This document shows positions 1-26,447 of a stretch of 64,000 nt of DNA, in pieces; within the stretch, counting starts at the first letter, position 1; each line of letters begins with the position of its first letter. Where the stretch lies: the NCBI GenBank assembly GCA_019116805.1, contig DXAV01000019.1, forward strand, positions 1 through 64,000, read 5' to 3'. The notes below the pieces were generated by a model. It did no database searches. It had not been told where the DNA came from and saw nothing but the letters and a program-made list of their open reading frames with translations. This DNA is from Candidatus Bacteroides merdavium. Lineage in GTDB: Bacteria > Bacteroidota > Bacteroidia > Bacteroidales > Bacteroidaceae. Both the position numbers and the translations under genes were made by a program.

Positions 1-1314
1 TTTCAGTTTCACGTTCACAATGTCGTTTCCCTTCAGGCGGACGAGCGTTTCTGCCGCCTTGCGTCCCTTGACCAGCCGAAGGCGATAGGTGCGGCCGACG
101 GGCAGGTTGCGCAGCACACAGGGCGCGAAGCCTGCCGCGAGGCCGTTCAGGAAGACGGCCGCATCTACCTCGTCGCACGACACGTTCAGCAGTCCGTAAT
201 CGGCCAGAGGCGAAATGAGGTTCAGCTCCACGCTCTTCCCCGCATCCACCCAGAAGAAGTCGGTGCGCGAGTCCAGTCCCTCCTTCTTCGAACTGACGGC
301 ATAAAAGCCCGGCGCCAGCTTTCCCCGCCATTCGCCCTGCCCCACCCGCTCGCGGTTGAGCCAGATTTCGGTGTCAGCGTCGAAGGCGGTAATGTGCACA
401 TCCGACCACCGGCCGGACGGAAGCGAAAGGCTGTCCACGGCCAGCGAATCGGGCAAAGCCTCCTCTCCGGCTTCAGGCACTCCCGTGCCCGCCCTGCGGA
501 ACGGACGAAGCCCGACGCCATGCAGGTTGACCACCCTGCGCTCGGCGTTAGCCAGCTCCACCCACCGCTCATGCCAGAGCGAGTCGCCCCGACTGACGGT
601 CAGGCGGTAGCGTCCGGGCATCAGGCGGGCCGTTTCGGCGCGCTGCACACCCACGGGCTGCCCGTCCAGGCAGATACGGGCATCGGGCCAGTCGGTCTCC
701 ACGGTCAGGTAGGCATAATAGGGCTGCAAGACATACCGCTTCTCGAAACGCACGGTGTCGGTCAGCTCGATGGTGTCGGTCAGAGTCTGGTAGAAGGGCG
801 ACTCGATGCGGCAGGCATGACGCCCCAGGGGCAGGTAGAGCGAAAGCTGTCCGTCCATGACGGGATGGACGACGGTATCGACGCAGACGATGGCATGGCC
901 GGGCACGACGGAAAGCACCGCCCACTGCTTCTGCTGGCGGTACTCCTTCTCCAGGCTTTCGGTATGGAGGTAGGCATGATAGTGCTTTTTCTTTTTCAGC
1001 ACGCCGTCGGGCACCTTCCAAGCCAACTGCCCGTAATCCGGATGCTTGACGGTGAGGAAAGCGGTGCGATGAGGCAGGGTCAGGGTGACCATTCCCTCCC
1101 CCTCGGCAGCAGGCACAGGCACGTCGCCCACAAAGAACTGGAAGCCTTTCTCGTTGGTGAAAAAGTCCAGCAGAGCCTGCCGCTTGTCGGTGGCAAAGGG
1201 CGCCTTCCGCAGGAACGGCTTCCTGTAGCGTCCAAAATCCTCGACGTGCATCCGCTGGGCCATCACGGGAAAGGCCGTCACGCACCATAAAAGTATGATC
1301 CACCCGTATCTCAT
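1..1314 (-). CDS. Secreted PEGA-repeat protein (partial, 3' end off window)
   Basis: An uninterrupted frame of 438 codons runs from an ATG at 1312-1314 to base 1 with no stop, so the C-terminus lies outside the window. The N-terminus (MRYGWIILLWCVTAFPVMAQ) is a typical signal peptide ending in Ala-Gln, so export is expected. The rest looks like successive PEGA-type beta repeats: one around residues 120-190, one around 215-270 (ICLDGQPVG), one around 305-365 (IWLNRERVGQG) and one around 370-438 (VFLNGLAAG). PEGA domains are surface or periplasmic beta modules of uncertain binding role. The gene is divergent from the ubiquitin-like/baseplate locus and shares its control region, so it may be a surface partner of that system; this is inference. 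A 279-codon frame over the same bases is out of phase and was discarded. Confidence 0.8.
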   Translation of the reverse strand, partial: MRYGWIILLWCVTAFPVMAQRMHVEDFGRYRKPFLRKAPFATDKRQALLDFFTNEKGFQFFVGDVPVPAAEGEGMVTLTLPHRTAFLTVKHPDYGQLAWKVPDGVLKKKKHYHAYLHTESLEKEYRQQKQWAVLSVVPGHAIVCVDTVVHPVMDGQLSLYLPLGRHACRIESPFYQTLTDTIELTDTVRFEKRYVLQPYYAYLTVETDWPDARICLDGQPVGVQRAETARLMPGRYRLTVSRGDSLWHERWVELANAERRVVNLHGVGLRPFRRAGTGVPEAGEEALPDSLAVDSLSLPSGRWSDVHITAFDADTEIWLNRERVGQGEWRGKLAPGFYAVSSKKEGLDSRTDFFWVDAGKSVELNLISPLADYGLLNVSCDEVDAAVFLNGLAAGFAPCVLRNLPVGRTYRLRLVKGRKAAETLVRLKGNDIVNVKLK

Positions 1315-1341
1315 GCGTACTGTTTCTGAAATCATGCCTTG

Positions 1342-1349
1342 CAAACATA
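1342..1349 (-). promoter_or_regulatory. Candidate -7 box for the PEGA-protein gene
   Basis: The minus strand reads TATGTTTG here, matching the Bacteroidetes -7 consensus TAnnTTTG, 28 bases before the ATG. I see no good -33 TTTG at the usual distance. Confidence 0.45.
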
Positions 1350-1983: not shown

Positions 1984-3216
1984 ATGAAAGAAAACGACCC
2001 GATACCGACCTTAGCTCCCACATGGGGCGCGGACGTGTTTCCGCTGCTCTCCTGGTTCAGACAGGAGCGGCTGAAGCAGGCCAACGTCATGGTGGTGGGC
2101 TGCGGTGCGCTGGGCAACGAGGTGCTGAAGAACCTGGCCCTGTTCGGCGTGGAGCATCTGGTCATCGTGGACTTCGACACCATCGAGCCGTCCAACCTGA
2201 CCCGCTCCATCCTCTTCAGCCGGGCCGACGCCGAAACACGCCGCCACAAGGCAACGGTAGCGGCAGAACGCCTCCGCGACATCAATCCCGCCATCCACGT
2301 ACTGCCCCTTGTGGGCGACATCTGCCACGACGTGGGGCTGGGCCTGCTGCGACGGATGGATGTCGTGGTGGGATGTGTGGACAACCGCTGGGCACGCTAC
2401 TGCCTGAACCGCCTGTGCATGCGTGCCGGTGTGCCCTGGGTGGACGGAGGCATCGACGGACTGGAAGGCACGGCGCGGGTATTCGTGCCCGGCAAGAACT
2501 GCTACGCCTGCAACCTGGGGCCCGAAGCGCTGAAAGACTTGTCGTACCGCCTGTCGTGCAGCGCGGCCATCCGACGGAACGAAGAAGCGGGCCGCGTGCC
2601 GACCACGCCGGTCATCGCCTCCATCATCGGTGCTGTGCAGGCACAGGAGGCCGTCAAGCTGCTGCACCCGGACGAATTGGCCGACGGAGAGCTGACCTCG
2701 CTGTGCGGCAAGATGTTCTACTACGAAGGCCAACACCTAGCCGCACGCATTGCGAACTTTGCGGGCTACGACGACGAATGCCCCATGCACGAACGATGGG
2801 AGCCGGTGGAAAAGGCAGACCTCACGACCGACCGGCCGATTGGCGAGGCACTGGACAGCCTGGCCGGGAAACTGGGATGCCGGGACCCGGAAATTGTACT
2901 CAGGGACCACTGCTTCGTGGACTACCTGACCGTACGGAAAGACGAGCGGAGGGTGGCCACCCTGCTGCCCGACTATGCCATCGCCCGCTTTCTGGAAGAA
3001 GAACCCTCGCTGCGACACCTTCCTTTCCACGCCCTGTACCAACACGAGATAAAAACCGTCGGCAAGGATTTTCCCTACCCGGAGCTGACGCTGGCACAGG
3101 TCGGCATCCCGCCGTGGAGCGTCCTGCACGTACGCACGGAAGACGGCAGCCGCTACGTGGAACTGGCCGACGAACGGAATTACGCAACCTTCTTATTTCA
3201 AAACAGACAGGCATGA
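1984..3216 (+). CDS. E1-like ubiquitin-activating (ThiF-family) enzyme
   Basis: A 410-residue ThiF/MoeB/E1-type adenylyltransferase expected to adenylate the C-terminal Gly of the modifier encoded at 7451-7768. Visible motifs are the nucleotide-binding GCGALG (39-44), NLTR with Arg74, the R-R-H-K segment ending at Lys89, and the VDN-x2-AR segment with Asp133. C-x2-C occurs at 173/176, and Cys176 (CNLGP) or Cys192 are candidates for the thioester Cys. MoeB and ThiF proteins usually show two CxxC zinc pairs; I find only one. After about residue 280 there is an extra domain whose end (LTLAQVGIPPWSVLHV, about 368-383) resembles a beta-grasp fold, as in the E2-docking domain of eukaryotic E1s; this is inference. 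The stop overlaps the next start by ATGA, implying coupling to the TssG-like gene. Confidence 0.92.
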   Translation: MKENDPIPTLAPTWGADVFPLLSWFRQERLKQANVMVVGCGALGNEVLKNLALFGVEHLVIVDFDTIEPSNLTRSILFSRADAETRRHKATVAAERLRDINPAIHVLPLVGDICHDVGLGLLRRMDVVVGCVDNRWARYCLNRLCMRAGVPWVDGGIDGLEGTARVFVPGKNCYACNLGPEALKDLSYRLSCSAAIRRNEEAGRVPTTPVIASIIGAVQAQEAVKLLHPDELADGELTSLCGKMFYYEGQHLAARIANFAGYDDECPMHERWEPVEKADLTTDRPIGEALDSLAGKLGCRDPEIVLRDHCFVDYLTVRKDERRVATLLPDYAIARFLEEEPSLRHLPFHALYQHEIKTVGKDFPYPELTLAQVGIPPWSVLHVRTEDGSRYVELADERNYATFLFQNRQA

Positions 3217-4031
3217 TGAACGAAACAGACCTATATGACATCAGTGCGGAATATCTGCTGAATTACCTCTACCCTGACCGCACAGACCAATGGCAGGCGG
3301 ATTGCGCCGGCACGTTCTATCGGAACTACAGCCCGGACATCCTGCCGCTTGAGGAAGACGGGCGGACGGTGCGCCTGACCCGTGACGGCTTCCTCCGGCT
3401 GCTTCCCCAAGGAGTCATCGCCCCCGACAATGCCCTGAAAGGAAAGGATTTCGAACAGAAATACGAACAGCTCAAGAAGAAAGAGGAACTCCTGAAAGAC
3501 CTCTTCCGGCCTGTGGACACACTGAACTTCAGGTTCCGCCTCCACATCGGGAAAGAGGCGGAAGAACTGTCGGGCGGGAAACTGGCCCTGCTGCTGAAAC
3601 GGTATTTCGGCTACGACCTGGAGCAGGAAGAAAATCCATACATCCGGAAAACGGCACCGCTGCTGCCGCTCGTCAGTCACCTGCGCGCCGACTTCGGCTT
3701 CCTGCACACCCTGCTGAAGAGTCTGTTCGGCTGCCCCGTGGAGATGACAACCGGACGATATACATGGGACGAAGGCAACGGCTATTCACAACCCGCCGTC
3801 AGCTACCACCTGCTTGTCCCCGACCTGACTACCGAGGCATACAACGAGCTGAAACAAGCCATAGATCCGTTCGCCGACTTTATCCGCGAATGGTTCATCC
3901 CCTTCGACACGCACTGTACCATAGCCGTCAAGCACCACGGCCGTCCCTTTGTCCTGGGCAACGCCCTGACACTGGACTACAACACCGAGACATCAACCCA
4001 GCATATTGACACTAACAGGAATCCATTATGA
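3213..4031 (+). CDS. TssG-like type VI secretion baseplate wedge protein
   Basis: 272 residues, somewhat shorter than classical TssG. It shows the TssG pattern: LPLVSHLRADFGFLHTLLKSLFG followed by CPVEM (about 151-178), an F-x2-F-x4-F-x-P segment (about 220-232) and a C-terminal VLGNALTLDYNT (248-258) like the TssG LG...YNT end. TssG pairs with TssF in T6SS baseplate wedges, and a TssF-like gene is in the same operon. The ATG at 3213 overlaps the E1 stop and a second ATG follows at 3216; the stop overlaps the next ATG. A much longer frame opens at 2022 but its first part only shadows the E1 gene. The family call rests on motif pattern and neighbours. Confidence 0.68.
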   Translation: MMNETDLYDISAEYLLNYLYPDRTDQWQADCAGTFYRNYSPDILPLEEDGRTVRLTRDGFLRLLPQGVIAPDNALKGKDFEQKYEQLKKKEELLKDLFRPVDTLNFRFRLHIGKEAEELSGGKLALLLKRYFGYDLEQEENPYIRKTAPLLPLVSHLRADFGFLHTLLKSLFGCPVEMTTGRYTWDEGNGYSQPAVSYHLLVPDLTTEAYNELKQAIDPFADFIREWFIPFDTHCTIAVKHHGRPFVLGNALTLDYNTETSTQHIDTNRNPL

Positions 4032-5170
4032 ACATCAATTCAAGAATAGACTGGAAAGCCGGCATGGCCATCACCGCCCAAACCTTCCTGGAACTGGACG
4101 AAAACCTGCGCCACAGGCAACAGGCGGCCACCCGGGCCGTCAACGGAAACGAATTCGGCCTCATCCCCTTCACCGAGTTCGACAACCGGGGTGGTTTCGT
4201 CCGCAACAAACTGGAAATAGAACGTCTGGCCTGCATGGCCCTTCTCCCTTCCGGAAAAATCCTGCACATTGACGAAAAGGTCGTGGTGACCGTCCCGCTG
4301 GTGTATGGCAACGAATACTACCTGGCCTGCGGCTTCGGCGAGAAAGACCTGGAATTCGACGTCGAGGAAGTGCCCTTCGTGCGGCCGGAATACACCTACG
4401 GCATCTACCCCCTGAGCGAACTGGAAGGGACAGACCTCTTCCCGGTCATGAAGTTCAAGGTCAACGAGGGTGTCTTTGCCATCGACGAATCCTATATCCC
4501 GCCCAGCCTGTATCTTTCGTCCGACAGCCGTTTCCAAGCCTATCTGGAACAGCTTACGGAGAAGACCCGCACGCTGGCCGAACATCCGAACCTGGAATCC
4601 GGCGAAGGGAAACGCGCCTTCCAGCGCTACGCCTATCTGCTAAAGAGCTATGACGCCCAAGGCAGAACACGCCCCTTCGTCCAACTGACCTACGAAATAG
4701 CCCAGGCCGCCGACTACTACATCGTCACGTCCCACTCAGAAACGCCGGCATCCATCCCAACCTATTCGGGATACGACATCGCAAGCTGGCTGGAGTGGCT
4801 GGACGGCTACCTGCACAATGCGGCAAGCATCCTTGACAAGGTTGTCCTGGAAGACCATTCCATCGACTTCGACGAACTGAAAGCACAAATCAAGGCGGAA
4901 CTGTACGAGCAATTGCGCCCCGAGCTGTACGAACAACTGTACGCCGAACTCAAAGAACGGCTCTATACCGAGATTTCCGAAGACCTGACCATCCGCCTGA
5001 CCGACTACATGAACCAGCAGCTCAAGGCCGAGCTGCACGACCTGTTGTCGGGCGAATTGTCGGAAGAACTGTACGAAAGACTGTACAAAAACCTGTATGA
5101 GAGCCTGTACAACGCCTTGTATGTCCCGACGGAAGAAGAAGAGGAAGAAGAGTTTACACCTTTAATTTAA
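4028..5170 (+). CDS. TssK-like baseplate adaptor with unusual repeat tail
   Basis: 380 residues. The start (IDWKAGMAITAQTF, 7-20) matches the TssK opening W-x-EG-x-PQHF, followed by a wild-type-like GL...F.. stretch, LPSGK (73-77) and IPPSLYLSSDSRF (157-169), all TssK shell-domain hallmarks. TssK links the baseplate to the membrane complex through a C-terminal head domain. Here residues 283-365 are instead a run of amphipathic repeats built on ELYEQL/LYAEL/ERLYKNLYESL, ending in seven consecutive Glu and a short tail. I infer that the head was replaced by a coiled or helical multimerisation or docking segment. It overlaps the TssG-like gene by ATGA. Confidence 0.7.
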   Translation: MNINSRIDWKAGMAITAQTFLELDENLRHRQQAATRAVNGNEFGLIPFTEFDNRGGFVRNKLEIERLACMALLPSGKILHIDEKVVVTVPLVYGNEYYLACGFGEKDLEFDVEEVPFVRPEYTYGIYPLSELEGTDLFPVMKFKVNEGVFAIDESYIPPSLYLSSDSRFQAYLEQLTEKTRTLAEHPNLESGEGKRAFQRYAYLLKSYDAQGRTRPFVQLTYEIAQAADYYIVTSHSETPASIPTYSGYDIASWLEWLDGYLHNAASILDKVVLEDHSIDFDELKAQIKAELYEQLRPELYEQLYAELKERLYTEISEDLTIRLTDYMNQQLKAELHDLLSGELSEELYERLYKNLYESLYNALYVPTEEEEEEEFTPLI

Positions 5171-5180
5171 CACGTTGCCT

Positions 5181-5627
5181 ATGAGCGTCCTACTACCCTT
5201 ACAAGTGACTGGCGGCCGGCTGGCCGGCTCCCCCAATCCGCAACCGGCCATCGACGCGTTCATCGAGCTGCTGTTGAGCACGCCATGCGGAGGCTGTGTG
5301 GCAGATCCGGAATTCGGGTTTATCTTCAATAACCTGAAGTTCGAAATCTTCAACGAGAAGGAAGGGGTCATTTATGACTCAGCACCTCAGGACGGTCCAT
5401 ATGCAAGATTATATGACAAAAAGGTGTCGGGGAATTCCCAAAACATCAACACATTCGCAGTGGATCTGAAAAAAGCCATCGAACAATACGAGAGAAGACT
5501 GACCGGCGTTTCCGTCTCCATGACCTACCTCAAAAGCCAAAAGATGATCCAAATCATCGTCGAAGGGTTGTTGACGGAAACCAACGAACCATACAAGTAC
5601 ACCACCAGCATCAACCTCTGGAACTAA
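5181..5627 (+). CDS. TssE/gp25-like baseplate protein
   Basis: 148 residues from the ATG at 5181; a TTG six bases upstream is a poorer choice. The fold signature of the GPW/gp25 lysozyme-like baseplate family is visible: DPEFGF (RPxFG-like) near residue 46, then an L-K-x-A-I-x-x-YERRLTGVSV segment near 100-115 that corresponds to the family EPRL-n-V motif, and a closing amphipathic strand pair. In T6SS and contractile phages this protein nucleates the sheath at the baseplate. No sheath gene is present in the window. It begins ten bases after the TssK-like stop. Confidence 0.8.
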   Translation: MSVLLPLQVTGGRLAGSPNPQPAIDAFIELLLSTPCGGCVADPEFGFIFNNLKFEIFNEKEGVIYDSAPQDGPYARLYDKKVSGNSQNINTFAVDLKKAIEQYERRLTGVSVSMTYLKSQKMIQIIVEGLLTETNEPYKYTTSINLWN

Positions 5628-5671
5628 CGACCTTCAGGGAACATCCCGACCAAAACTAAAATGAAACAGAA

Positions 5672-7366
5672 ATGAAGCAGACGATATTCAACACACGCCA
5701 AAGGGCAGAAGAAATCATCAAGGAAGCCATTGCCGCCTGGGAACAAAGCACCAACAGCGAACACCTGGAAGGGATTGAGCAAGATCCGGTTTTCTCGCTG
5801 TTTCTGACAGCACTGGCCTATCAGGCCAACGAAATCGACAACGAAATCGAACAGCTCAAAGCCGAAATTCTCTACGAACTGGGACAGATGCTTGTTCCCT
5901 ACGAACGGACTCACGCGCTTCCGGCAACGGCTGCCGTGGAGGTGACGCCGAGTGACAGCATCGCGATACAGACACTGGACCATCGGACAGTATTTTCCCT
6001 ACAGGACACGCCGTTCACGTTCATTCCGTTTCTCAGAACACGTGTGTTCAACTGTAAAACCACGTCAATAGCCCGAATGGACAGCCGTCGCTGGAAAGTG
6101 GCCCTGCAATGCAAGGAACCGCTCAACAATCTGTCCGGCATGACCTTCCTGATCGGCAATCCTCACTTCCAGGACCTGAAGGTTTTTGCCAACGGCCACC
6201 CGCTGCCGCTCATCAAGCCGTGGGACTATGCGGACCTGCCTCTGGACAGCTGTTTTTCACTGGAGAACCTGATCTATAACCAATCGCCCGTGTTCCAGCC
6301 CCGCCACATCTGGTTCGACCTGTTTGCCAGACAGAACGTACGGCTGTTCGCCATAGATTCCTACAAGACGCCTGCCGCATCGCAACCGACCGAAAGGCTG
6401 GAACTGGTATTCGAGTTCTTCGGCATCGACGACCAGTTTCTGTTCGACAAGGAGATGTTGTCCCTGAACTGTACCATCCTGGCCAATGCCTCCATAGCAT
6501 CTGCGACCCTCTCGGCCAGTTCCCCCATCACACGCCTGGCCGGACGGAACGACCTCTCCACGCGCTGGCAATTTCTGCACCTGCTCCGACCGACAGACAC
6601 GCAGATATTCAAAGAAGAGCCCATTGAAATCCGCAAGATGACAGCAAGCCGGTTCAACCCCGAACATTTGGTCAAACTGGCCAGCACGCTTATCAGCCGC
6701 TTCTCCTCCGATTATTATGCTTTCCAGGGCATCGACACCCTCCGGGAAGGGAACTTCATGGAAAGCTTCTACTCCCTGCTGAAAAAGATGTCGGAAGGAG
6801 TGGCCAAGGCCTCGAACACCTACACTTCGAGCCTGTATCTGATGCTCAAGAACGACAACGGTTTCCGCCCCAAAGACAAAAGTCTCCACATAGACTATCT
6901 GGTCACCAACGGCAGTGCCGTCAATGGCTTGCTGAACAACAAAAGCAAGTTCAATATTCAGGCAAACGGATATTTCACAAATGCCAGACTGGTTGCCGAA
7001 CCCATGCCAGGTTTTGACGAAGCACAAAGCATAGACGCCGAAAACGCGCTTGCGCGCTACTACCTGACGACCAACGACCGCATCGTGACACCGGCTGACA
7101 TCAAGGTGCTGTGCTATAACGAACTGGCCGCCCGGTTCGGCATCACCAACGAGATGATTACAGGCATAAGAGTCAGAAACAGCCGCCACACCGAACGCAA
7201 CCACTGCGGACTGGAAACCCAGGTTTACATCTCTCTGAAAAACGACCCGTTCATCAAACGGAGCTTTCAAGGGAAAATACCGATGACCGAAATGGTGCTG
7301 CAAAAAATGATTGAAGTGAGAAGCGCCAATATCCTGCCGGTCCAGGTCAATATCGAAATCGGCTAA
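5672..7366 (+). CDS. TssF-like type VI secretion baseplate protein
   Basis: 564 residues, normal for TssF. The N-terminal block DPVFSLFLTALAYQ...EILYELGQMLVPYERT (about 38-86) corresponds to the TssF DP...LleafAf...LL..l.P segment and is followed by the expected beta-rich region. The C-terminal third (NALARYYLTTNDRIVTPADI, about 453-472) matches the family pattern of a region preceding a cysteine-poor terminal fold. TssF and TssG form the inner baseplate wedge together with TssE and dock to TssK, so all four wedge components are clustered here. A short start/stop pair at 5661 precedes the chosen ATG. Confidence 0.78.
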   Translation: MKQTIFNTRQRAEEIIKEAIAAWEQSTNSEHLEGIEQDPVFSLFLTALAYQANEIDNEIEQLKAEILYELGQMLVPYERTHALPATAAVEVTPSDSIAIQTLDHRTVFSLQDTPFTFIPFLRTRVFNCKTTSIARMDSRRWKVALQCKEPLNNLSGMTFLIGNPHFQDLKVFANGHPLPLIKPWDYADLPLDSCFSLENLIYNQSPVFQPRHIWFDLFARQNVRLFAIDSYKTPAASQPTERLELVFEFFGIDDQFLFDKEMLSLNCTILANASIASATLSASSPITRLAGRNDLSTRWQFLHLLRPTDTQIFKEEPIEIRKMTASRFNPEHLVKLASTLISRFSSDYYAFQGIDTLREGNFMESFYSLLKKMSEGVAKASNTYTSSLYLMLKNDNGFRPKDKSLHIDYLVTNGSAVNGLLNNKSKFNIQANGYFTNARLVAEPMPGFDEAQSIDAENALARYYLTTNDRIVTPADIKVLCYNELAARFGITNEMITGIRVRNSRHTERNHCGLETQVYISLKNDPFIKRSFQGKIPMTEMVLQKMIEVRSANILPVQVNIEIG

Positions 7367-7420
7367 GAAACCGCTGGGGAAAATCTTTCGACAAACGGCA
7401 AGTGAGAACCTATAAATTAT

Positions 7421-7428
7421 TACTTTTG
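7421..7428 (+). promoter_or_regulatory. Candidate internal -7 box before the ubiquitin-like gene
   Basis: TACTTTTG matches TAnnTTTG and lies 23 bases before the ATG at 7451, in the 84-bp gap after the TssF-like gene. No convincing TTTG is found 19-23 bases upstream. It may allow the modifier and E2 to be expressed apart from the baseplate genes. Confidence 0.4.
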
Positions 7429-7450
7429 TAACCCAAACAGAAACGCAATC

Positions 7451-7768
7451 ATGGAAGATTTCTTTTTAGACATCGTATATAAAGACAAAAAGGTAAGGTT
7501 CCGCATCATGAACCCACAGGCACCACTGAGCGCCCTGATGAACAACCTGCGTCATGCTATCGGAAAGGACGGACGGCTCATTTTCGACTTTCCGTCGATA
7601 GACCCGACAGGTGCTCCCCTGGACTATTTTTTCGGAAAAGAGGACACGACGACCCACGAAACGCGTGTACTCAGACCCCGAATCGGCAAGACCGACCAGA
7701 CGCTGGCCGACTACAACGTCAACAACGGCGACACGGTTTTCCTAATTCCAGATCCCTTCCCCGGATAA
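7451..7768 (+). CDS. Ubiquitin-like modifier protein with C-terminal Gly
   Basis: 105 residues with beta-grasp features: an opening hairpin (FFLDIVYKDKKVRFRI, 4-19), a helix (APLSALMNNLRHAIG, 24-38), and a late segment TLADYNVNNGDTVFLI (about 83-98) that closely parallels ubiquitin TLSDYNIQKESTLHLV. The protein ends P-D-P-F-P-G directly before the stop, so a terminal glycine carboxylate is present without a processing peptide; most modifiers end in GG. A peptidase of the JAB or Ulp type is neither required nor seen nearby. The E2 gene follows after 22 bases and the E1 gene opens the operon. I infer conjugation to an unknown target. An insertion around residues 50-80 makes it longer than ubiquitin (76 residues). 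Confidence 0.82.
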   Translation: MEDFFLDIVYKDKKVRFRIMNPQAPLSALMNNLRHAIGKDGRLIFDFPSIDPTGAPLDYFFGKEDTTTHETRVLRPRIGKTDQTLADYNVNNGDTVFLIPDPFPG

Positions 7769-7790
7769 AATCCAACAAACAAGAGCAACC

Positions 7791-8393
7791 ATGCAAACGT
7801 ATCCTATGAACTGGCAGGACTATTCCCCCCAACTATTGAGCGGAAGAAACCGAAGGCTGCTCCATGAATGGAGCCAACTGGACCGTGCTCTGGAACACCG
7901 GAAAGAAATCGGATACCAAGTCAGCAGACGTAACGAGCAAGGCATGCCCACAACCTACCTGATAACCTATCGCATCCGTTCCATCTGCGGCGTGGAACAG
8001 CTTGAACAACTAAACGAACCGAACATCAACAACAAGCCCGTCTTTGCCTCCTGTTTCGTCATGCGTATCAGCCTGCCGGAGAATTATCCTTGCGTGGACG
8101 CACCTGCCGAATTTTATTTCCAGACTCATGACCAGGATGGAAAAGCAATCCCCCATCCATGGCATCCCAATATCCGATACTTCGGAGATTTCGCAGGAAG
8201 AGTCTGCCTGAATACACCCGACACTTATTCCAGCCTGGCCTGGTGTGTGGAACGTATCGGGCATTACTTGAGTTACGACCGCTATCACGCCACCCAAGAA
8301 CCGCCCTATCCGGAGGACTTGAAAGTAGCCGAATGGGTCGTCAGACAGGGTGAACCCCACGGATGGATTTACTTCGACCAGCAACCCTTGTAA
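7791..8393 (+). CDS. E2-like ubiquitin-conjugating enzyme
   Basis: 200 residues with the UBC core. A strand pair ends LPENYPCVDAPAEFYF (95-110), equivalent to the E2 lP-YP-x-PP-v-F segment. His125-Pro126-Asn127 forms the HPN motif, and Cys139 in GRVCLN is the predicted thioester Cys. Trp151 lies in LAWCVERIGHYL, which matches the conserved E2 W...l..i..lL helix. The Asn-to-Cys spacing is 12 residues, longer than the 8 typical of eukaryotic E2s, so the active-site loop carries an insertion. The enzyme should accept the modifier from the E1 encoded at 1984-3216 and pass it to a target, possibly with the RING protein at 10500-12932. It follows the modifier gene by 22 bases. Confidence 0.9.
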   Translation: MQTYPMNWQDYSPQLLSGRNRRLLHEWSQLDRALEHRKEIGYQVSRRNEQGMPTTYLITYRIRSICGVEQLEQLNEPNINNKPVFASCFVMRISLPENYPCVDAPAEFYFQTHDQDGKAIPHPWHPNIRYFGDFAGRVCLNTPDTYSSLAWCVERIGHYLSYDRYHATQEPPYPEDLKVAEWVVRQGEPHGWIYFDQQPL

Positions 8394-8435
8394 AAAATAA
8401 GATTACAGAACTGCTTCATATTCAATTTAATTTGT

Positions 8436-8443
8436 TATTTTTG
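8436..8443 (+). promoter_or_regulatory. Candidate -7 box before the envelope genes
   Basis: TATTTTTG fits TAnnTTTG, 26 bases before the ATG at 8469, in the 75-bp AT-rich gap after the E2 gene. The -33 element is weak. Confidence 0.35.
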
Positions 8444-8468
8444 TCCATACATATTTGAATACAGAAAC

Positions 8469-9617
8469 ATGAAATTCCTGAATAAAGTCATATATGGTCT
8501 TCTCCTGCTCTGCATCAGTTGTACCCTCAACGCGCAAACGGTCAAGCAGATAGAAGTGGCGGGAAATGCCCCATACGTGGACCACATCTCACTTATACCG
8601 GGAACAACCGACATGGACCTTCTGGTAAAAATCAGCTTCAACGAGCCGAACAACAGCCTCACTGTCCACCTGATATCCTATCGGAAGTTGTTTGCCTTCC
8701 AAAGCGATGTGCGCTATTCGCAGGTGGTACGCCACCACAAGCTCCGTCCAAACAAACTGCCTTATGTGGTGGAATCGGACGAAAAAGCAATCTACAAGAT
8801 GACCAAAGCGTTGAGAAAATCCATCAAACCTAAAAGAAAGCACGTCTTCAACCAATGGATTGCGTACGAAGGACTCCAACCGCAGCCAACGGAATACAAG
8901 ATGGTGAACGACTATATCGAACAGACATTCGACATCCTTCATGAAGTGGCCGACGTGTCTATTACGCTAAGAGACCTATTGGTGATGAACGAACAGGACA
9001 GCCGGAAAAAGACCCGATACGACCTGTTCTTCCAGACGGATCTGAACCGAAAATACAACATATCCATCAAAAGAGATCCATGTTTCGGAAAAGAAGAAGC
9101 CATACAGGAATCCGCGACTCAGGTGGAAAGCATCAAGGCCGGCTATACCTTGCTCAACCAGAAATTCGGCCAAAACTCCAACCAGAACACTCCAGAGAGC
9201 GCAAAAATATTCAACGAGATGAAAGCCCTTCTGATGAAACAATTTCCCAGAAAGGAAGGGAACAACGCCTGTCCTGACATTCAAGCTAACATAGAAGCCT
9301 ACAACCAGTACGTGGATGCCATCGAAAAGATGCAATGTAAATTCCAAGTCTTGAAAAAGAAAGGAAGCACCGCCCTTGACCTCAGTGCCGACTATATTCT
9401 GACAACAGCCCGGAAGATCGACAACAACACCAACAAATGGTTACTGAGCACAGACAACATTGAAAAAGCAGACTTGGAGACATCCTGCAACCAGGCTATC
9501 AGCTTGATTGAGACACACGTGAAACAGGCGACCCACATCAGCCAGAGCCAACAAGACGCCCTCAATATCTTCAATCAGGCAAAAGTATATTTTCGCAAGA
9601 CCTGCACAAAAGAATGA
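8469..9617 (+). CDS. Exported protein of unknown function in the Ubl/baseplate operon
   Basis: 382 residues beginning with a signal peptide (MKFLNKVIYGLLLLCISCTLNAQ; cleavage after LNA or NAQ is likely, although Cys18 could alternatively be lipidated). I recognise no domain. Residues about 24-100 look beta-rich, the remainder is mostly helical and hydrophilic, with Cys residues near 200, 279, 301, 341 and 379. It should be periplasmic or surface exposed. The stop overlaps the next start by ATGA, so it is translated with the coiled-coil membrane protein that follows. A structural role in the envelope part of the system is inferred from position only. Confidence 0.75.
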   Translation: MKFLNKVIYGLLLLCISCTLNAQTVKQIEVAGNAPYVDHISLIPGTTDMDLLVKISFNEPNNSLTVHLISYRKLFAFQSDVRYSQVVRHHKLRPNKLPYVVESDEKAIYKMTKALRKSIKPKRKHVFNQWIAYEGLQPQPTEYKMVNDYIEQTFDILHEVADVSITLRDLLVMNEQDSRKKTRYDLFFQTDLNRKYNISIKRDPCFGKEEAIQESATQVESIKAGYTLLNQKFGQNSNQNTPESAKIFNEMKALLMKQFPRKEGNNACPDIQANIEAYNQYVDAIEKMQCKFQVLKKKGSTALDLSADYILTTARKIDNNTNKWLLSTDNIEKADLETSCNQAISLIETHVKQATHISQSQQDALNIFNQAKVYFRKTCTKE

Positions 9618-10468
9618 TACGGATGGAAGAAGGAGCACATAACATACGATGGATCATCGGCCTATGCCTTTGTATAATCCTGTCCTGCACAAGTGTATCG
9701 GGACAGGACGAACAAACGACGTTTGCCGACAAAATGCACCTGCTGGAAACAGAAGAACGCATGCTCTATTTCTATCAGGAGCTCAAAGATATCTCTGCCA
9801 GGCTGGGACAATGCAAAACGATAGAAGAACTTGCAGGAACCAACAAACAAGTAACAGCCATCGATGCCAAATGGAACACCTACTACCAATCAAGACAGAT
9901 AGAAATTGCCGAAGACGACTCCCTTCTACAGATCGTTGCCGACTACCAACTGGCCAAACAGAACCTACTGGACTCGATCGCCTTTCAAAAACACATCATC
10001 GACGCACGTAAGGAATTTACCGAAGCTGAAATATTTTTCCAGAAACAGGATAGCAGTTATGCGCAACTGTACAAGACAGCCTTAGAATTATCGCTGGTAC
10101 AGGCATTGACCCCAAAATTGGAAAAGATGAAAGGCAAGGAACAACTGCTGTTTGCAGAAGCTCAAGGACATTATGATACAGCCAAAAGCCTGTCGGAGGA
10201 GTTCAGTGAGTTTCTTCCTCGATTTCAGCCCATTGAAGAAAAATTCATCGAAATAAAAAATTTGTCTGAAAAGATACAGGCGTTGGAATACAAGCCTTTG
10301 CTGGAACGCATCAAAGATTACTTGTACAGTCTGGCTGCAGTTGCCATGATCCTATTATTTCTCAACATGGTGCAAGCCAAAATAAAAGCACTGAAACAAG
10401 CGCGAGAGAATGCAAAGAAACTACGCGAGATGATGAACAACGAGGAGAGCGACTATCCGACCATCTAA
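9614..10468 (+). CDS. Coiled-coil envelope protein with C-terminal membrane anchor
   Basis: 284 residues, with an N-terminal export signal (WIIGLCLCIILSCTSVSGQ, about 13-31) and one strong transmembrane helix near the C-terminus (about 240-258, LYSLAAVAMILLFLNMV), followed by a short Lys/Arg-rich cytoplasmic tail. Between them the chain is charged and predicted helical, probably a long periplasmic coiled coil. The layout resembles a strut joining inner membrane to periplasm. A second Met at codon 4 could be the true start. Its position between an exported protein and the RING membrane lipoprotein suggests a shared membrane complex. No family recognised. Confidence 0.72.
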   Translation: MIRMEEGAHNIRWIIGLCLCIILSCTSVSGQDEQTTFADKMHLLETEERMLYFYQELKDISARLGQCKTIEELAGTNKQVTAIDAKWNTYYQSRQIEIAEDDSLLQIVADYQLAKQNLLDSIAFQKHIIDARKEFTEAEIFFQKQDSSYAQLYKTALELSLVQALTPKLEKMKGKEQLLFAEAQGHYDTAKSLSEEFSEFLPRFQPIEEKFIEIKNLSEKIQALEYKPLLERIKDYLYSLAAVAMILLFLNMVQAKIKALKQARENAKKLREMMNNEESDYPTI

Positions 10469-10499
10469 TGAAACCATAATCCCCAAATAACCAGTAACA

Positions 10500-12932
10500 A
10501 TGAACAACCGCCACACCATACTGTTTCTGCTGACTTTCATCCTCATTCTATCGGGCTGCAACAACTTGACGTCCAACAATGAAGAATACAAAAAAGATGT
10601 GAACATCAACATCACTAAAATTGAGTTCGAGCCCGATCATAAACACTTCCGACTGGACGTAGAGATCAATGACACGCTCACAGACCAGCTGTTGAGTACC
10701 AGTGCGGACAGTATCCACTTCAAGACGGAGGAATTCCTAAAAGGCAACATCTACGACCCCAAGACCCAGCCCCAACTGATAAGTTACGAAAATCTGAAAC
10801 TAAAAGAAATCGCCAAACTCAAATTGGACGCACTTTTCCTGATAGACCTGACATTGGACTCCACAGCCATCAGCCAGCAATATCAGATTATCAAAAACTT
10901 GAAACGCCTTTTTGCCTTGGAGCATCTTCACGTGGCCTTCATGAAAAATGAAAAGGTGACTCCAACCATGATAGCGACAGATTATGTCCTGAACAATTAT
11001 TTCAAGAGCGAACCCGGAAGGAAATACCTTTATCGGGCTATTTCACATAAGATTGACGAATTCAAAAACGATTCTTCCGAGTATGTAAAAAACGCAAAGG
11101 AAAACATATCTACCGCCCCACTTGCCTCCACACGAAAAATCATGTTTGTGTTTTCTGACGCAAAGGTTTACGAACACAACAAGCCCATTGACCCAAAACA
11201 CTTCGAACTGCAACACCAGATTGCCCAACAGATTGATACGACCATGAAGCTACCCATCTTCTATTTCAATCTGAAGAAGCAGAACGACAGTGAAGAACAG
11301 ACGAAAGAACAATCCGAACAATCAAAACTGACAGATGAAGAAGCACAAAACTTTCTGGCAGTCCTCTGCCAAAAAAGCGGAGGAAAATACATCAACGCAT
11401 TCAACCAGAAACTGAAACTGAATGACATATTGCATCTGTTCACCAAAGACTATATCGACTATGTCTTTACTTTCGTCAATCCCGACTATAAAATCTACAG
11501 GGGGATGGAACGAAAACTTCAAATCGGCTGCTACTCCGGTGACAGCCTGATAGCATCCGACTATATCTACTATAATGTGGGAAGCGTTTACAACCCCATC
11601 ATCGTCAATGGGGCGACAACGCTGCAAATCATTCTTCAAGGCTGCTTCCTGGGCATACTGACTATTATCATAATCTACCTGATATTCCAATTTGTCACGC
11701 CATGTATCAGTTACTGGTTATTTAAGAGGAAATATGTAACCCGCTATACTGGCAGGAACATGAGCTACAACGGAATGCTGATTGAGCAATCCTGCTACTT
11801 CTGCAAAGCCCCGTTCGTAGAAGGCGACGAAATTGTGGCTAAATGCAAGCACATACTCCACAAATCATGCTGGGACGAGAATGAATACAAATGTCCCGAA
11901 TATGGACGGCATTGCAAACATGGGAGCCACTATTACAACCGCAAGAATCTGTTCGACCCACATAACGCATCGTTCTATCTCATTTGGATTATAGCCGGTG
12001 CATTTGCCGGACTTGTTGCCTGGATTTATTTCACAGCCAACGCCCATCACAATGAGAACCTGTTGCTGGTAAGACTCATCCATCTCATCTTCAATGTGAA
12101 CCCCAGTTCGCCAGAAGCCATAACCCTGATGGATGAATATGGGAGTCACCTCTTTTTCCTCCCTTTCTACGGACTGACGATCGGATTTTCCCTCACACTT
12201 TCGCTGAGTTTGCTGACCACTCACGGCCGATGGTTGTGGAAAAGAACTTTGCAGATAGCCGCCAAGGCTATCATCGGAGGCCTGTTCAGTTATTTGGCCT
12301 TCTTTATCGGATGTGTCATTTCCATCACGCTAAACTTTAAAGACAACTCTTTCCTAATAGATTGGATACCTTGGATGCTCAGCGGATTTATCATTGCTGC
12401 CACAGTTTCCTATGGAACCGACATCAAACTGAAGAAAGCCCTGATAGGCGCGGCTATCTCCATTATTTTCGGTTTAGGCTCTATGTATATATGGTCGTAT
12501 GGTTTCAATTCGCAAGTGGACACACGCGAATTCCAGCTTCTAAGCTACATGATCTACTGCATTGGATTTGCCATCAGCGTGGCAGCTACCAGTCCGAAAT
12601 CAGAACACTACTTCCTACGGGTGGAAGGTCCCATCAAGGAAATGGACATCGCTGTTTACAAATGGATGAACTCGCACGAACAAGGCAAGACGATTTCCAT
12701 TGGCAAGTCGGTCAACTGTGACCTGCAAATGACGTGGGACATCACCAGCCCCATCGCACCCGAACAGGCTGAGGTGAAAATGATTAATGGATATCTCTAC
12801 CTGACAGCATTGGAAGAAGGTGTCGTGTTCGACAAGAAGCCGTTGAAGACAAACGTCAGGAAAAAGCTTTATCATGGAACCAAGTTTGTCATAGGAAAGA
12901 CGACATTCACCTACCTCGAAAAAGACTTGTAG
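10500..12932 (+). CDS. Polytopic lipoprotein with RING-H2-like and FHA-like domains (candidate E3)
   Basis: 810 residues. A lipobox (LILSGC, Cys20) anchors the N-terminus. Residues about 105-325 look like a degenerate von Willebrand A fold (ALFLIDLTLDS at 111-121, IMFVFSDAKV at 214-223), presumably periplasmic. A transmembrane helix (about 373-400) then leads to the cytoplasm. There Cys432, Cys435, Cys449, His451, His454, Cys457, Cys465 and Cys472 form C-x2-C-x13-C-x-H-x2-H-x2-C-x7-C-x6-C, a RING-H2-like pattern except that the last spacing is longer than the usual C-x2-C. About six helices follow (roughly 492-697), and residues 703-810 resemble an FHA domain (ISIGKSVNCDLQM ... KKLYHGTKFVIG). 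RING domains recruit E2s, and an E1, E2 and modifier are in the same operon, so I infer a membrane E3-like scaffold. A purely structural zinc knuckle is the alternative. Confidence 0.75.
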   Translation: MNNRHTILFLLTFILILSGCNNLTSNNEEYKKDVNINITKIEFEPDHKHFRLDVEINDTLTDQLLSTSADSIHFKTEEFLKGNIYDPKTQPQLISYENLKLKEIAKLKLDALFLIDLTLDSTAISQQYQIIKNLKRLFALEHLHVAFMKNEKVTPTMIATDYVLNNYFKSEPGRKYLYRAISHKIDEFKNDSSEYVKNAKENISTAPLASTRKIMFVFSDAKVYEHNKPIDPKHFELQHQIAQQIDTTMKLPIFYFNLKKQNDSEEQTKEQSEQSKLTDEEAQNFLAVLCQKSGGKYINAFNQKLKLNDILHLFTKDYIDYVFTFVNPDYKIYRGMERKLQIGCYSGDSLIASDYIYYNVGSVYNPIIVNGATTLQIILQGCFLGILTIIIIYLIFQFVTPCISYWLFKRKYVTRYTGRNMSYNGMLIEQSCYFCKAPFVEGDEIVAKCKHILHKSCWDENEYKCPEYGRHCKHGSHYYNRKNLFDPHNASFYLIWIIAGAFAGLVAWIYFTANAHHNENLLLVRLIHLIFNVNPSSPEAITLMDEYGSHLFFLPFYGLTIGFSLTLSLSLLTTHGRWLWKRTLQIAAKAIIGGLFSYLAFFIGCVISITLNFKDNSFLIDWIPWMLSGFIIAATVSYGTDIKLKKALIGAAISIIFGLGSMYIWSYGFNSQVDTREFQLLSYMIYCIGFAISVAATSPKSEHYFLRVEGPIKEMDIAVYKWMNSHEQGKTISIGKSVNCDLQMTWDITSPIAPEQAEVKMINGYLYLTALEEGVVFDKKPLKTNVRKKLYHGTKFVIGKTTFTYLEKDL

Positions 12933-21654: not shown

Positions 21655-23289
21655 ATGATATACGAATATAACATTCGAGTGCTACCCGAGGTAGCCGCCA
21701 ACGAACAACGATTGAAAGCCTATCTCGTACGCGAGAAAGGCCTTGACGAGAGAACCCTCAACGCCACCCGCATCCTGAAGCGGAGCATCGACGCCCGCCA
21801 GCGGACGGTCTTCGTGAACCTCACCGTGCGGGCCTACGTCAACGAAGTGCCCAAGGACGACGAATACCAGCATACGGACTACCCCAACGTGGAAGGCCGC
21901 CCGCAAGTCATCGTCGTGGGTGCCGGCCCAGGCGGCCTCTTCGCCGCCCTGCGCCTCATCGAGCTGGACCTGCGCCCCGTGGTGGTGGAGCGCGGCAAGG
22001 ACGTGCGCGAGCGCAAGAAAGACCTGGCCCAGATCAGCCGCACACAGGCCGTGGACCCCGAATCGAACTACAGCTTCGGCGAAGGCGGCGCGGGAGCCTA
22101 CTCCGACGGTAAGCTCTACACCCGCAGCAAGAAGCGCGGCAATGTGGACAAGATACTCAACGTCTTCTGCCAGCACGGTGCTTCCCCCTCCATCCTGGTG
22201 GACGCCCATCCGCACATCGGTACCGACAAGCTGCCCCGCGTCATCGAGAACATGCGCAACACCATCCTCCAGTGTGGCGGCGAAGTGCATTTCCAGACAC
22301 GCATGGACGCCCTGCTCATCGAAGGTGACGAGGTGAAGGGCATCGAAACCCATACGGGACAGACCTTCCTCGGCCCCGTTATCCTGGCCACGGGCCACTC
22401 CGCCCGCGACGTCTATCGCTGGCTGGCCGCCAACGACGTGGAGATTGAGGCCAAGGGAATCGCCGTGGGTGTGCGCCTGGAACATCCTGCCCACCTCATC
22501 GACCAAATACAGTATCACAACAGAAACGGCCGCGGCAAGTACCTGCCCGCCGCCGAATACAGCTTCGTCACGCAGGTCGAAGGCCGTGGCGTTTACAGCT
22601 TCTGCATGTGCCCCGGCGGCTTCATTGTGCCCGCTGCCAGCGGTCCCGAACAGATTGTGGTGAACGGCATGAGTCCCAGCAACCGCGGCTCGCGCTGGAG
22701 CAACAGCGGCATGGTGGTGGAGATACGACCGGAAGACCTGGAAAATGAAGAACTAAGAATGAAGAATGAAGAATTATTGGGCGATGATAGAAATTCTTCA
22801 TTCGGAAGCACAGCTTCCATTCTTCATTCTTCATTAAATATGCTTTCCTTTCAGGAACACCTTGAGCGCCTCTGCTGGCAGCAGGGTAACCGTCGTCAGA
22901 CGGCGCCTGCGCAGCGCATGGCCGACTTCGTGAACCGCTGTCTCAGTGCCGACCTGCCCGAGTCGTCGTACGCCCCCGGCCTGATTGCTTCGCCCCTGCA
23001 CTTCTGGCTGCCCCCGTTCATCGCCGGGCGCCTGGCCAAAGGCTTCCAGCAGTTTGGCCGCAACGCCCATGGCTTCCTGACCAACGACGCCGTGATGATA
23101 GCCGTGGAGACCCGCACGTCGGCACCCGTCCGCATCGTGCGCGACCGCGACACCCTGCAACATGTCCGCCTGCGCGGCCTCTTCCCCTGCGGCGAGGGAG
23201 CTGGCTATGCCGGCGGCATCGTCTCGGCTGGTGTAGATGGCGAGCGGTGTGCCGAAGCTGCGGCAGAATATTGCGAAGGAAATAAATAA
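21655..23289 (+). CDS. FAD-dependent dehydrogenase (COG2509 type) with in-frame repeat insertion
   Basis: 544 residues. A small N-terminal alpha/beta domain (1 to about 75) precedes the FAD-binding VIVVGAGPGGLFAALR (about 83-98). Further family segments are SFGEGGAGAYSDGKL, FCMCPGG (about 320), RRQTAPAQR and the C-terminal PCGEGAGYAGGIVSA FAD loop. The substrate is unknown; the family is often annotated as an uncharacterised NAD(P)/FAD oxidoreductase. Codons 363-396 are made of the palindromic GAATGAAGAA/ATTCTTCATTC repeat and interrupt the family sequence between EIRPEDL and LSFQEHLE without breaking the frame. The insertion lies on a loop judging by the surrounding sequence. Confidence 0.9.
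   Translation: MIYEYNIRVLPEVAANEQRLKAYLVREKGLDERTLNATRILKRSIDARQRTVFVNLTVRAYVNEVPKDDEYQHTDYPNVEGRPQVIVVGAGPGGLFAALRLIELDLRPVVVERGKDVRERKKDLAQISRTQAVDPESNYSFGEGGAGAYSDGKLYTRSKKRGNVDKILNVFCQHGASPSILVDAHPHIGTDKLPRVIENMRNTILQCGGEVHFQTRMDALLIEGDEVKGIETHTGQTFLGPVILATGHSARDVYRWLAANDVEIEAKGIAVGVRLEHPAHLIDQIQYHNRNGRGKYLPAAEYSFVTQVEGRGVYSFCMCPGGFIVPAASGPEQIVVNGMSPSNRGSRWSNSGMVVEIRPEDLENEELRMKNEELLGDDRNSSFGSTASILHSSLNMLSFQEHLERLCWQQGNRRQTAPAQRMADFVNRCLSADLPESSYAPGLIASPLHFWLPPFIAGRLAKGFQQFGRNAHGFLTNDAVMIAVETRTSAPVRIVRDRDTLQHVRLRGLFPCGEGAGYAGGIVSAGVDGERCAEAAAEYCEGNK
22741..22840. repeat. ATTCTTCATTC palindromic element inside a coding sequence
   Basis: The left arm repeats GAAGAATGAAGAAT. The right arm repeats ATTCTTCATTC and contains an inner hairpin GGAAGCACAGCTTCC. 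The element encodes about 34 residues (charged Asn/Glu then Ser/His-rich) within the FAD-dependent dehydrogenase gene. Related copies elsewhere in the window are intergenic. Confidence 0.85.
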
Positions 23290-23309
23290 CCATAACTTAA
23301 CTCTTGATT

Positions 23310-23918
23310 ATGACATCCACTCCCGAAATCGCCATTATCGGCTCCAACACCCTGAGCAACCTGGGGCTGGGCAGCCTGCTCGAAGAGCTGATACCTGGTG
23401 CCATCATCCGTACGTTCACCTCGTTTGCAGCCTTTATGGACGACACGCCCGACATGTATGCCCACTACTTCATTTCGTCGCAGGTGTATCTGGAGCATAC
23501 GGCGTTCTTCCTGCCGCGGCGTCCCAAGACCATTGTGTTGGCTGCAGGTGAGGGGAACCCGCAACTGGCGGGCGTGCTGACGCTGAACATCTGCCAGCCG
23601 GAGAAGGAACTGGTGCGGAGTATCGTGCAGTTGCACGGGCACGGCCATCGACACGGACACCCCGGCAAACTGCCCGCACCGGCCGACCTGCCAGCCAACC
23701 TGACATCCGGTCACGACCTGACGGCGCGCGAGATAGAGGTGCTGGTGCTGGTGGTCAAAGGGTTTATCAACAAGGAGATAGCCGACCGCCTGAACATCAG
23801 CCTGACCACCGTCATCAGCCACCGCAAGAACATCACGGAGAAGCTGGGCATCAAGTCTGTCTCGGGCCTCACCATCTATGCCGTGATGCGCGGCTATGTG
23901 GAGGCCGACCAAATCTGA
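23310..23918 (+). CDS. LuxR-type regulator with degenerate receiver and His-rich linker
   Basis: 202 residues from the ATG at 23310; a TTG two codons earlier is in frame. Residues 1 to about 105 have receiver-like alternation (EIAIIGSN..) but lack the acidic pocket and the phospho-acceptor Asp at strand 3, so phosphorylation is unlikely. Residues 109-117 alternate His (109, 111, 113, 115, 117), a possible metal-binding linker. The LuxR helix-turn-helix (about 136-195: LTAREIEVLVLVVKGFINKE, ISLTTVISHRKNITEKLG) is intact. It lies just upstream of a TonB-dependent receptor gene and a palindrome at 23938-23951, which suggests a local target. Metal or redox sensing is inference. Confidence 0.85.
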   Translation: MTSTPEIAIIGSNTLSNLGLGSLLEELIPGAIIRTFTSFAAFMDDTPDMYAHYFISSQVYLEHTAFFLPRRPKTIVLAAGEGNPQLAGVLTLNICQPEKELVRSIVQLHGHGHRHGHPGKLPAPADLPANLTSGHDLTAREIEVLVLVVKGFINKEIADRLNISLTTVISHRKNITEKLGIKSVSGLTIYAVMRGYVEADQI

Positions 23919-23937
23919 CCACTTTCTCCCGCGATTT

Positions 23938-26385: not shown

Positions 26386-26408
26386 TACCCCTGCCAGGCT
26401 TTTTTCTC

Positions 26409-26442
26409 CCCCAGTTAAGAAAAAACAAATTCTTAACTGGGG
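26409..26442. terminator. Hairpin between the TonB receptor and histidine kinase genes
   Basis: CCCCAGTTAAGAA (26409-26421) and TTCTTAACTGGGG (26430-26442) form a perfect 13-bp stem with an 8-base loop in the convergent gap. Rightward it is followed by AAATTTTATAAT, leftward by no T run, so it is best as the receptor gene terminator. Confidence 0.75.
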
Positions 26443-26447
26443 AAATT

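What the first reader, a model, noticed from the sequence alone, without database searches (positions are those of the whole stretch)
1984..12932. Ubiquitin-type conjugation cascade encoded together with T6SS-like baseplate proteins
Seen: one operon-like run holds an E1-like ThiF protein, TssG-, TssK-, TssE/gp25- and TssF-like proteins, a ubiquitin-like modifier, an E2 with HPN and Cys139, two exported or anchored proteins and a RING-H2/FHA-like membrane lipoprotein, linked by three ATGA overlaps. Known: bacterial Ubl systems (CBASS Cap2/Cap3, Bil operons) carry E1/E2 and sometimes a Ubl and JAB peptidase; Bil modifies phage tail tips. T6SS wedges derive from phage baseplates. I am not aware of a characterised system joining both. 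Inference: either a baseplate-like platform that conjugates the modifier to phage tails or envelope targets, or a secretion-like machine controlled by ubiquitin-like tags.
Basis: partly seen in the sequence, partly recalled or inferred. Interest (0 to 1): 0.95.

Follow-up and report, generated by a model that had tools for sequence, protein, structure and literature searches.

The report
Type VI secretion with ubiquitin-like cascade
Several Bacteroidales bacteria carry a type VI secretion system (a phage-tail-like injection machine) whose gene cluster is interleaved with genes for a predicted ubiquitin-like tagging cascade, which likely marks parts of the machine to control its assembly or firing.

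Summary
Ten genes (window 1984-12932) encode E1-like, TssG, TssK, TssE, TssF, a ubiquitin-like protein (Ubl), E2-like, two exported proteins and R810, a vWA-TM-RING-6TM-FHA membrane protein. All ten keep order and strand in 16 of 20 related loci; the other four are cut by contig ends. They are half of a type VI secretion system (T6SS): ClpV, TssB, TssC, Hcp and VgrG were found in 7 of 7 genomes read, on the operon's contig in five and on another contig in two, the window's own genome among them. Ubl ends in Gly in 22 of 22 rows, E2 keeps WHPN and Cys in 23 of 23, the RING keeps eight ligands in 21 of 21. Over seven genomes Ubl is as conserved as tube and sheath, unlike E1/E2. TssN, hub of the known Bacteroidota membrane complex, is missing from 16 of 18 such genomes. 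Best reading: a dedicated Ubl-conjugation system licenses T6SS docking or firing. Genes are shown; conjugation, target and function are inferred. Phage defence is unlikely. Searches of an open-access library listed no such system.

The parts
1..1344 (-). PEGA-domain exported protein, cut by the start of the contig; neighbour of E1 in relatives
   Evidence: clusters with L018:4682-6094, which has PEGA at 4.5e-16
1984..3216 (+). E1-like adenylating enzyme, one ThiF domain; probable catalytic Cys192, CxxC 173/176, C266/H269 (window protein numbering)
   Evidence: ThiF 6.9e-52; these residues in 20 of 20 rows; which Cys is catalytic is inferred
3216..4031 (+). TssG-like baseplate protein
   Evidence: no Pfam hit alone; hhalign 99.4% with the TssG-like family of canonical loci, one member of which matches PF06996 at 6.7e-5, under its cut-off
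4028..5170 (+). TssK-like baseplate protein; C-terminal half (185-380) is a repeated, probably helical pattern
   Evidence: TIGR03353 1e-13; hhalign 98.5% over residues 4-184 only; pattern read from sequence
5181..5627 (+). TssE / gp25
   Evidence: PF04965 4.6e-8; hhalign 98.5%
5672..7366 (+). TssF-like baseplate protein
   Evidence: PF05947 2.7e-3; hhalign 99.7% over 15-563
7451..7768 (+). Ubiquitin-like modifier (Ubl), 105 aa, ends in Gly
   Evidence: beta-grasp model; weak ubiquitin match; C-terminal Gly 22 of 22 rows
7791..8393 (+). E2-like conjugating enzyme, WHPN motif and Cys139
   Evidence: UQ_con 3.3e-3; Ube2K match with Cys in register; motif and Cys 23 of 23 rows
8469..9617 (+). S382, exported protein without a known domain, candidate membrane-complex part
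   Evidence: in 20 of 20 loci, partial in L017; no Pfam hit above cut-off; export read from sequence
9614..10468 (+). M284, signal peptide plus C-terminal TM (read from sequence); fused to R810 in L028
   Evidence: in 19 of 20 loci; L017 ends before it
10500..12932 (+). R810: lipobox Cys20, vWA (about 106-316), TM 374-412, RING 428-475, six TM helices within 492-697, FHA 703-808; candidate membrane E3 and anchor
   Evidence: AlphaFold mean pLDDT 72.8; vWA and FHA folds in PDB; RING ligands 21 of 21, Cys20 19 of 21

Best explanation
These ten genes are the baseplate and membrane half of a type VI secretion system locus that also encodes E1-like, E2-like, ubiquitin-like and RING-like membrane proteins, and this cascade likely attaches the modifier to parts of the machine at the inner membrane to license its docking or firing. 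Shown by sequence: the T6SS genes, their conserved order with E1-Ubl-E2-R810, invariant catalytic-type residues, no TssN in 16 of 18 such genomes, and a TssK whose C-terminal half does not align with canonical TssK. Inferred: E1 adenylates the C-terminal Gly of Ubl and passes it to E2 Cys139; R810 senses envelope state through its periplasmic vWA domain, and its cytosolic RING brings E2~Ubl to the baseplate; Ubl joined to a lysine of the machine (or of R810) takes over the docking role proposed for the ubiquitin-like domain of TssN in the known Bacteroidota T6SS. The FHA domain of R810 would add a phospho-input, in line with a sister T6SS type that carries kinases and FHA proteins instead of the Ubl cascade.
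Confidence: 0.5

Rival explanations
1. Ubl is conjugated to cargo (effectors, VgrG or Hcp-like proteins) as a loading or export signal rather than as a switch of the machine.
For: VgrG is the most variable protein compared (35.7% mean identity over six) while Ubl is nearly fixed, as a universal tag would be; the locus carries Hcp-like and long VgrG genes.
Against: With T6SS, E1 lies directly beside TssG wherever both were seen, in the close loci and in G178, G242 and G046, not beside VgrG or PAAR; R810 is a membrane protein with a predicted periplasmic domain.
Confidence: 0.2
2. Ubl acts mainly as a non-covalent structural part, a detached docking domain in place of TssN, and E1/E2 regulate it through adenylation or thioester only.
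For: TssN is missing and Ubl resembles EccD-type ubiquitin-like domains; Ubl evolves like a structural subunit.
Against: E2 keeps HPN and Cys in 23 of 23 rows, which argues for transfer to lysine (established knowledge of E2s).
Confidence: 0.17
3. A Bil- or CBASS-like anti-phage system that modifies incoming phage baseplates or tails, with the Tss genes as decoys.
For: Bacterial E1/E2/Ubl operons characterised so far include defence systems (recalled); E1 has PADLOC E1-E2 matches over its adenylation part (best 6.7e-17).
Against: A T6SS tail is present; no JAB or CD-NTase among the proteins scanned; no E2 relative in viral contigs.
Confidence: 0.06
4. Sulfur-carrier chemistry: a ThiF-type E1 and a beta-grasp protein forming a thiocarboxylate.
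For: E1 scores highest against ThiF and MoeB models.
Against: Scores are far under those models' cut-offs (134 against 275 bits for ThiF); an E2-like protein with invariant Cys travels with it.
Confidence: 0.03

Closest known systems
T6SS subtype iii of Bacteroidota (TssNQOPR membrane complex; PMC10781749)
   Same: PF17541-type TssC, PF17642-type Hcp, ClpV, TssB, VgrG, DUF4280 PAAR-like, TssE/F/G/K
   Different: No TssN in 16 of 18 genomes; E1 next to TssG; TssK C-terminal half does not align; other membrane proteins (S382, M284, R810); TssC lies apart from the canonical rows
Bil operons (BilABCD) and other E1-E2-JAB-Ubl operons
   Same: E1, E2 and Ubl in one operon
   Different: No JAB found; E1 with one ThiF domain, not two; E2 has HPN rather than the CEHH arrangement (review PMC11354881, passages); joined to a T6SS. 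The 2006 survey (PMC1779556, passages) lists operons with JAB and E2s lacking the usual His
Prokaryotic RING-E1-E2-YukD-like Ubl clusters predicted by Burroughs, Iyer and Aravind 2011 (recalled; not held)
   Same: E1, E2, RING and a free Ubl in one neighbourhood (recalled)
   Different: I could not check whether that paper lists this cluster or links it to T6SS
T6SS controlled by threonine phosphorylation (PpkA/Fha; recalled) and the kinase/FHA type seen here in G258
   Same: A post-translational cascade encoded in the T6SS locus, with an FHA domain
   Different: Ubiquitin-like cascade instead of kinases

Membership tests
Type VI secretion system (general) | Contractile tail: TssB, TssC, Hcp, VgrG, PAAR, ClpV | tested here: met
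   Own genome contig C78: TssC 4.9e-104, Hcp 1.2e-30, VgrG Phage_base_V 6.3e-18, DUF4280 8e-33, ClpV AAA domains; TssB only 0.038 by Pfam but homologous to TssB in place in the other loci
Type VI secretion system (general) | Baseplate TssE, F, G, K | tested here: met
   (TssK N-terminal half only)
Type VI secretion system (general) | Membrane complex TssJLM | tested here: inconclusive
   No TssJLM hit in the ten operon proteins; not searched genome-wide
T6SS subtype iii | TssN (PF17555) between TssK and TssG | tested here: not met
   No match in 16 of 18 Ubl-type genomes, the window's included; G297 has one plus a second, canonical TssC; G307 a partial match under cut-off. No gene lies between TssG and TssK in the window
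T6SS subtype iii | TssR (PF17643) | tested here: inconclusive
   Found in 2 of 22 genomes (G019, G297); 4 genomes with canonical systems (G100, G285, G250, G287) had none either, so the model does not discriminate
T6SS subtype iii | TssO, TssP, TssQ | not tested
   only that the ten operon proteins gave no Pfam hit to them
Ubiquitin-like conjugation cascade | Ubl beta-grasp with C-terminal Gly; E1 with Cys; E2 with HPN and Cys | tested here: met
Ubiquitin-like conjugation cascade | Covalent transfer of Ubl to lysine | not testable with these tools
   needs biochemistry or mass spectrometry
RING E3 ligase | C3H2C3 Zn ligands with RING spacing | tested here: inconclusive
   eight ligands 21 of 21, but last pair x6 not x2, Pfam hits under cut-off, most ligands lost in G372 and G466
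Bil system | JAB peptidase (BilC) and two-domain E1 (BilD) in the operon | tested here: not met
   no JAB in the locus proteins scanned; E1 410 aa with one ThiF stretch
CBASS with Cap2/Cap3 | CD-NTase and E2-E1 fusion | tested here: not met
   E1 and E2 are separate genes; no CD-NTase among the ten operon proteins

The most novel reading that the evidence does not exclude
Bacteroidota evolved a portable ubiquitin-like E1-E2-Ubl-RING/vWA/FHA module that plugs into contractile injection machines (T6SS, perhaps eCIS) and replaces a fixed docking domain by a covalent, switchable ubiquitin-like tag: ubiquitin-type signalling used to arm a bacterial injection weapon rather than to fight phage.
Probability: 0.37. 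Interest if true: 0.95.

Novelty: new variant of a known kind. Interest (0 to 1): 0.88.

Why it matters
To my knowledge it would be the first bacterial secretion machine governed by ubiquitin-like conjugation, and a second anchoring plan for T6SS in Bacteroidota, where one study reports subtype iii as the only type and its membrane complex, or part of it, in all systems (PMC10781749 section 11). It makes testable what an HPN-type bacterial E2 with a RING-like partner does outside defence. Named strains among the carriers, such as Mediterranea massiliensis Marseille-P2645T and Millionella massiliensis Marseille-P3215T, make it approachable.

Tried and rejected
Chance neighbourhood: made unlikely by 20 loci and co-occurrence. 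Orphan baseplate: rejected once TssC, Hcp, VgrG and ClpV were found; the first sheath search (PF05943) was negative because this TssC belongs to PF17541. Homology of TssN with Ubl or R810: no signal. TssG profile against PDB sequences: 0 hits. R810 profile against PDB sequences: an unrelated hit at 0.2 and weak RING hits from 1.1. PHROGs: only weak baseplate matches and E1 matches of unknown function. A first survey with window TssF hit 11 of 295 genomes, strongly in three; weak hits came from other T6SS types. Single origin of the Ubl type on the TssC tree: not supported (two changes, AU p 0.03, long branches), so either the kinase type lost the cascade or G046 gained it apart. In that tree I labelled the second TssC of G307 'kinase' by likeness only; its genes were not read. 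Literature: searches listed no paper on T6SS or eCIS with a Ubl cascade; I saw listings (15 of 3,313 for, 20 of 44) and passages of five papers plus one section. PMC4714493 has no 'ThiF' or 'ubiquitin' in its main text and found no T6SS in nine Alistipes genomes (passages). The 2011 RING paper is not held.
Full report
What is there. The window's ten ORFs at 1984-12932 are intact and co-directional, with gaps of -4 to 84 bases. Database hits for the window proteins alone are strong only for E1 (ThiF 6.9e-52), TssK (TIGR03353 1e-13, under its cut-off) and TssE (gp25 4.6e-8), and under curated cut-offs for TssF, Ubl, E2 and RING; TssG had none in Pfam. Family alignments make the case. hhalign against Tss families taken, with my own profiles, from canonical Bacteroidales T6SS loci gives TssG 99.4%, TssF 99.7%, TssE 98.5% and TssK 98.5% probability. 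TssK aligns only over residues 4-184, so its C-terminal half, in canonical systems the side that meets the membrane complex (recalled), is different here. The E2 profile finds Ube2K-type E2s with the Cys in register (9.3e-4). The Ubl profile finds ubiquitin only weakly (2.1e-3 for tetra-ubiquitin by summing copies, 0.27 to 1 for most natural one- and two-domain chains), through a 'TLxDYN' stretch.

Conservation. A scan of one genome for each of 84,980 species with a TssF alignment returned 20 loci whose titles name Bacteroides, Mediterranea, Caecibacteroides, Alistipes, Millionella, Parabacteroides, Prevotella and a Paludibacteraceae bacterium. Sixteen of 20 carry all ten genes in the same order and strand; the other four (L017, L021, L028, L030) lack genes at a contig end, and L028 fuses M284 to R810. 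Ubl ends in Gly in 22 of 22 rows (window, 20 loci, G178); E2 has WHPN and Cys in 23 of 23 (also G242); E1 has C173, C176 and C192 in 20 of 20; R810 has all eight RING ligands in 21 of 21 and the lipobox Cys in 19 of 21.

The whole machine. TssC of PF17541 is present in 19 of 19 genomes searched: 15 with this operon, G178, G242, and G258 and G273, which carry another type (in G273 only a fragment at a contig end). In Millionella (G298) one run of about 25.5 kb reads ClpV, TssB, TssC, two Hcp, an Hcp-like protein, VgrG, a 595-aa protein, PAAR-like DUF4280, an RRF-like and a PEGA protein (both on the other strand), then E1 to R810. Six further genomes, the window's included, have ClpV, TssB, TssC, Hcp and VgrG in the stretches read. 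In the window's own MAG (85.6% complete) the tail contig C78 begins inside the RRF-like gene and the window's contig C72 inside the PEGA gene, as an assembly break between these neighbours would leave them (inference).

Not the canonical subtype iii. The published Bacteroidota T6SS anchors through TssNQOPR, with tssN between tssK and tssG; TssN interacts with TssK, and its cytosolic ubiquitin-like, EccD-like domain is proposed as the dock (PMC10781749, passages, section 11). TssN (PF17555) was sought in 25 genomes and was over cut-off in 6. Of 18 Ubl-type genomes 16 have no match; G297 has one and also a second, canonical TssC; G307 has a partial match under cut-off. Five of six canonical-type genomes have it (G247 none); G258 has none. 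TssR was uninformative. On a TssC tree of 25 rows the ten canonical rows lie on one side of a branch (100/99); on the other side are G046, a pair (G258 and the second TssC of G307) and 12 Ubl rows. The Ubl rows are not one clade (AU p 0.03), and long branches make this tentative. G258 carries three kinase genes and FHA proteins in its T6SS region and no E2 by genome-wide search. Eight canonical genomes have no E1, E2, Ubl or R810 match in the stretches read, some only 6-9 kb long, and are not among the 5 E2 hits of the order.

Rates. Over seven genomes mean identity is Hcp 87.0, Ubl 85.4, TssC 84.4, TssB 81.7, ClpV 75.0, E1 60.6, E2 59.3, TssK 57.5, TssE 55.6, TssF 52.9, TssG 48.7, R810 48.3, S382 46.7, M284 44.6 and VgrG 35.7 (six rows). 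The modifier evolves at the pace of tube and sheath, not of its enzymes. I take this as a hint that its final partner is the conserved machine; it is not proof.

A portable module? An E2 profile search of 395 genomes of the phylum hit 3, the window's genome and G372 and G466, two genomes of one genus; of 295 of the order it hit 5. G372 and G466 hold E1-Ubl-E2-about 760 aa-R some 2 kb from a PAAR gene, in a neighbourhood that also holds an eCIS (sheath 1.5e-10, gp25 2.6e-24, Phage_base_V 5.2e-19, Pvc16_N 3.9e-25); the sheath-to-Pvc16 block lies about 18 kb away in G372 and 42 kb in G466, so this link is looser than the T6SS link. There most RING ligands are lost. G016 holds the module close to SrfB and SrfC-type genes, with no TssC found in its genome. 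In G016 and G466 the Ubl has four and two residues after the Gly, so a processing step would be needed.

Interpretation. The anatomy fits a T6SS whose docking or firing is set by ubiquitin-like conjugation at a membrane platform. Shown: genes, order, residues, TssN missing from 16 of 18 genomes. Predicted: folds and topology. Inferred: activation, transfer, E3 role, target, effect. Rivals are cargo tagging and a non-covalent docking role; phage defence is unlikely. Novelty: the listings of searches in an open-access library showed no description of such a system; a 2011 study on prokaryotic RING fingers that I only recall may have listed the enzyme part.

Noticed in passing
L018:3940-4677 (-), L050:1-690 (+, start cut): A protein with ribosome-recycling-factor similarity (PF01765 7.9e-14 and 7e-10) lies in this T6SS locus; its role is unknown.
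   Followed up: partly
L035, L052 (G258); L036 (G273): Another T6SS type without E1, E2 or Ubl matches in the stretches read; in G258 no TssN or E2 genome-wide, and kinase and FHA genes by Pfam. L036 looks similar by sequence only.
   Followed up: partly
L088-L095 (G372, G466): The E1-Ubl-E2-vWA/FHA membrane protein module in an eCIS neighbourhood, 18 and 42 kb from the sheath block; RING ligands mostly lost.
   Followed up: partly
L096-L098 (G016): The same module close to SrfB and SrfC-type genes; further ORFs there (joined coordinates 23181-23927 and 25811-26884) begin like a Ubl by eye.
   Followed up: partly
window 4580-5170: TssK C-terminal half shows a repeated 'LYExL' pattern with an acidic tail and does not align with canonical TssK.
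   Followed up: partly
L028:5648-8977: M284 and R810 fused in one 1109-aa ORF, suggesting that they work together.
   Followed up: no
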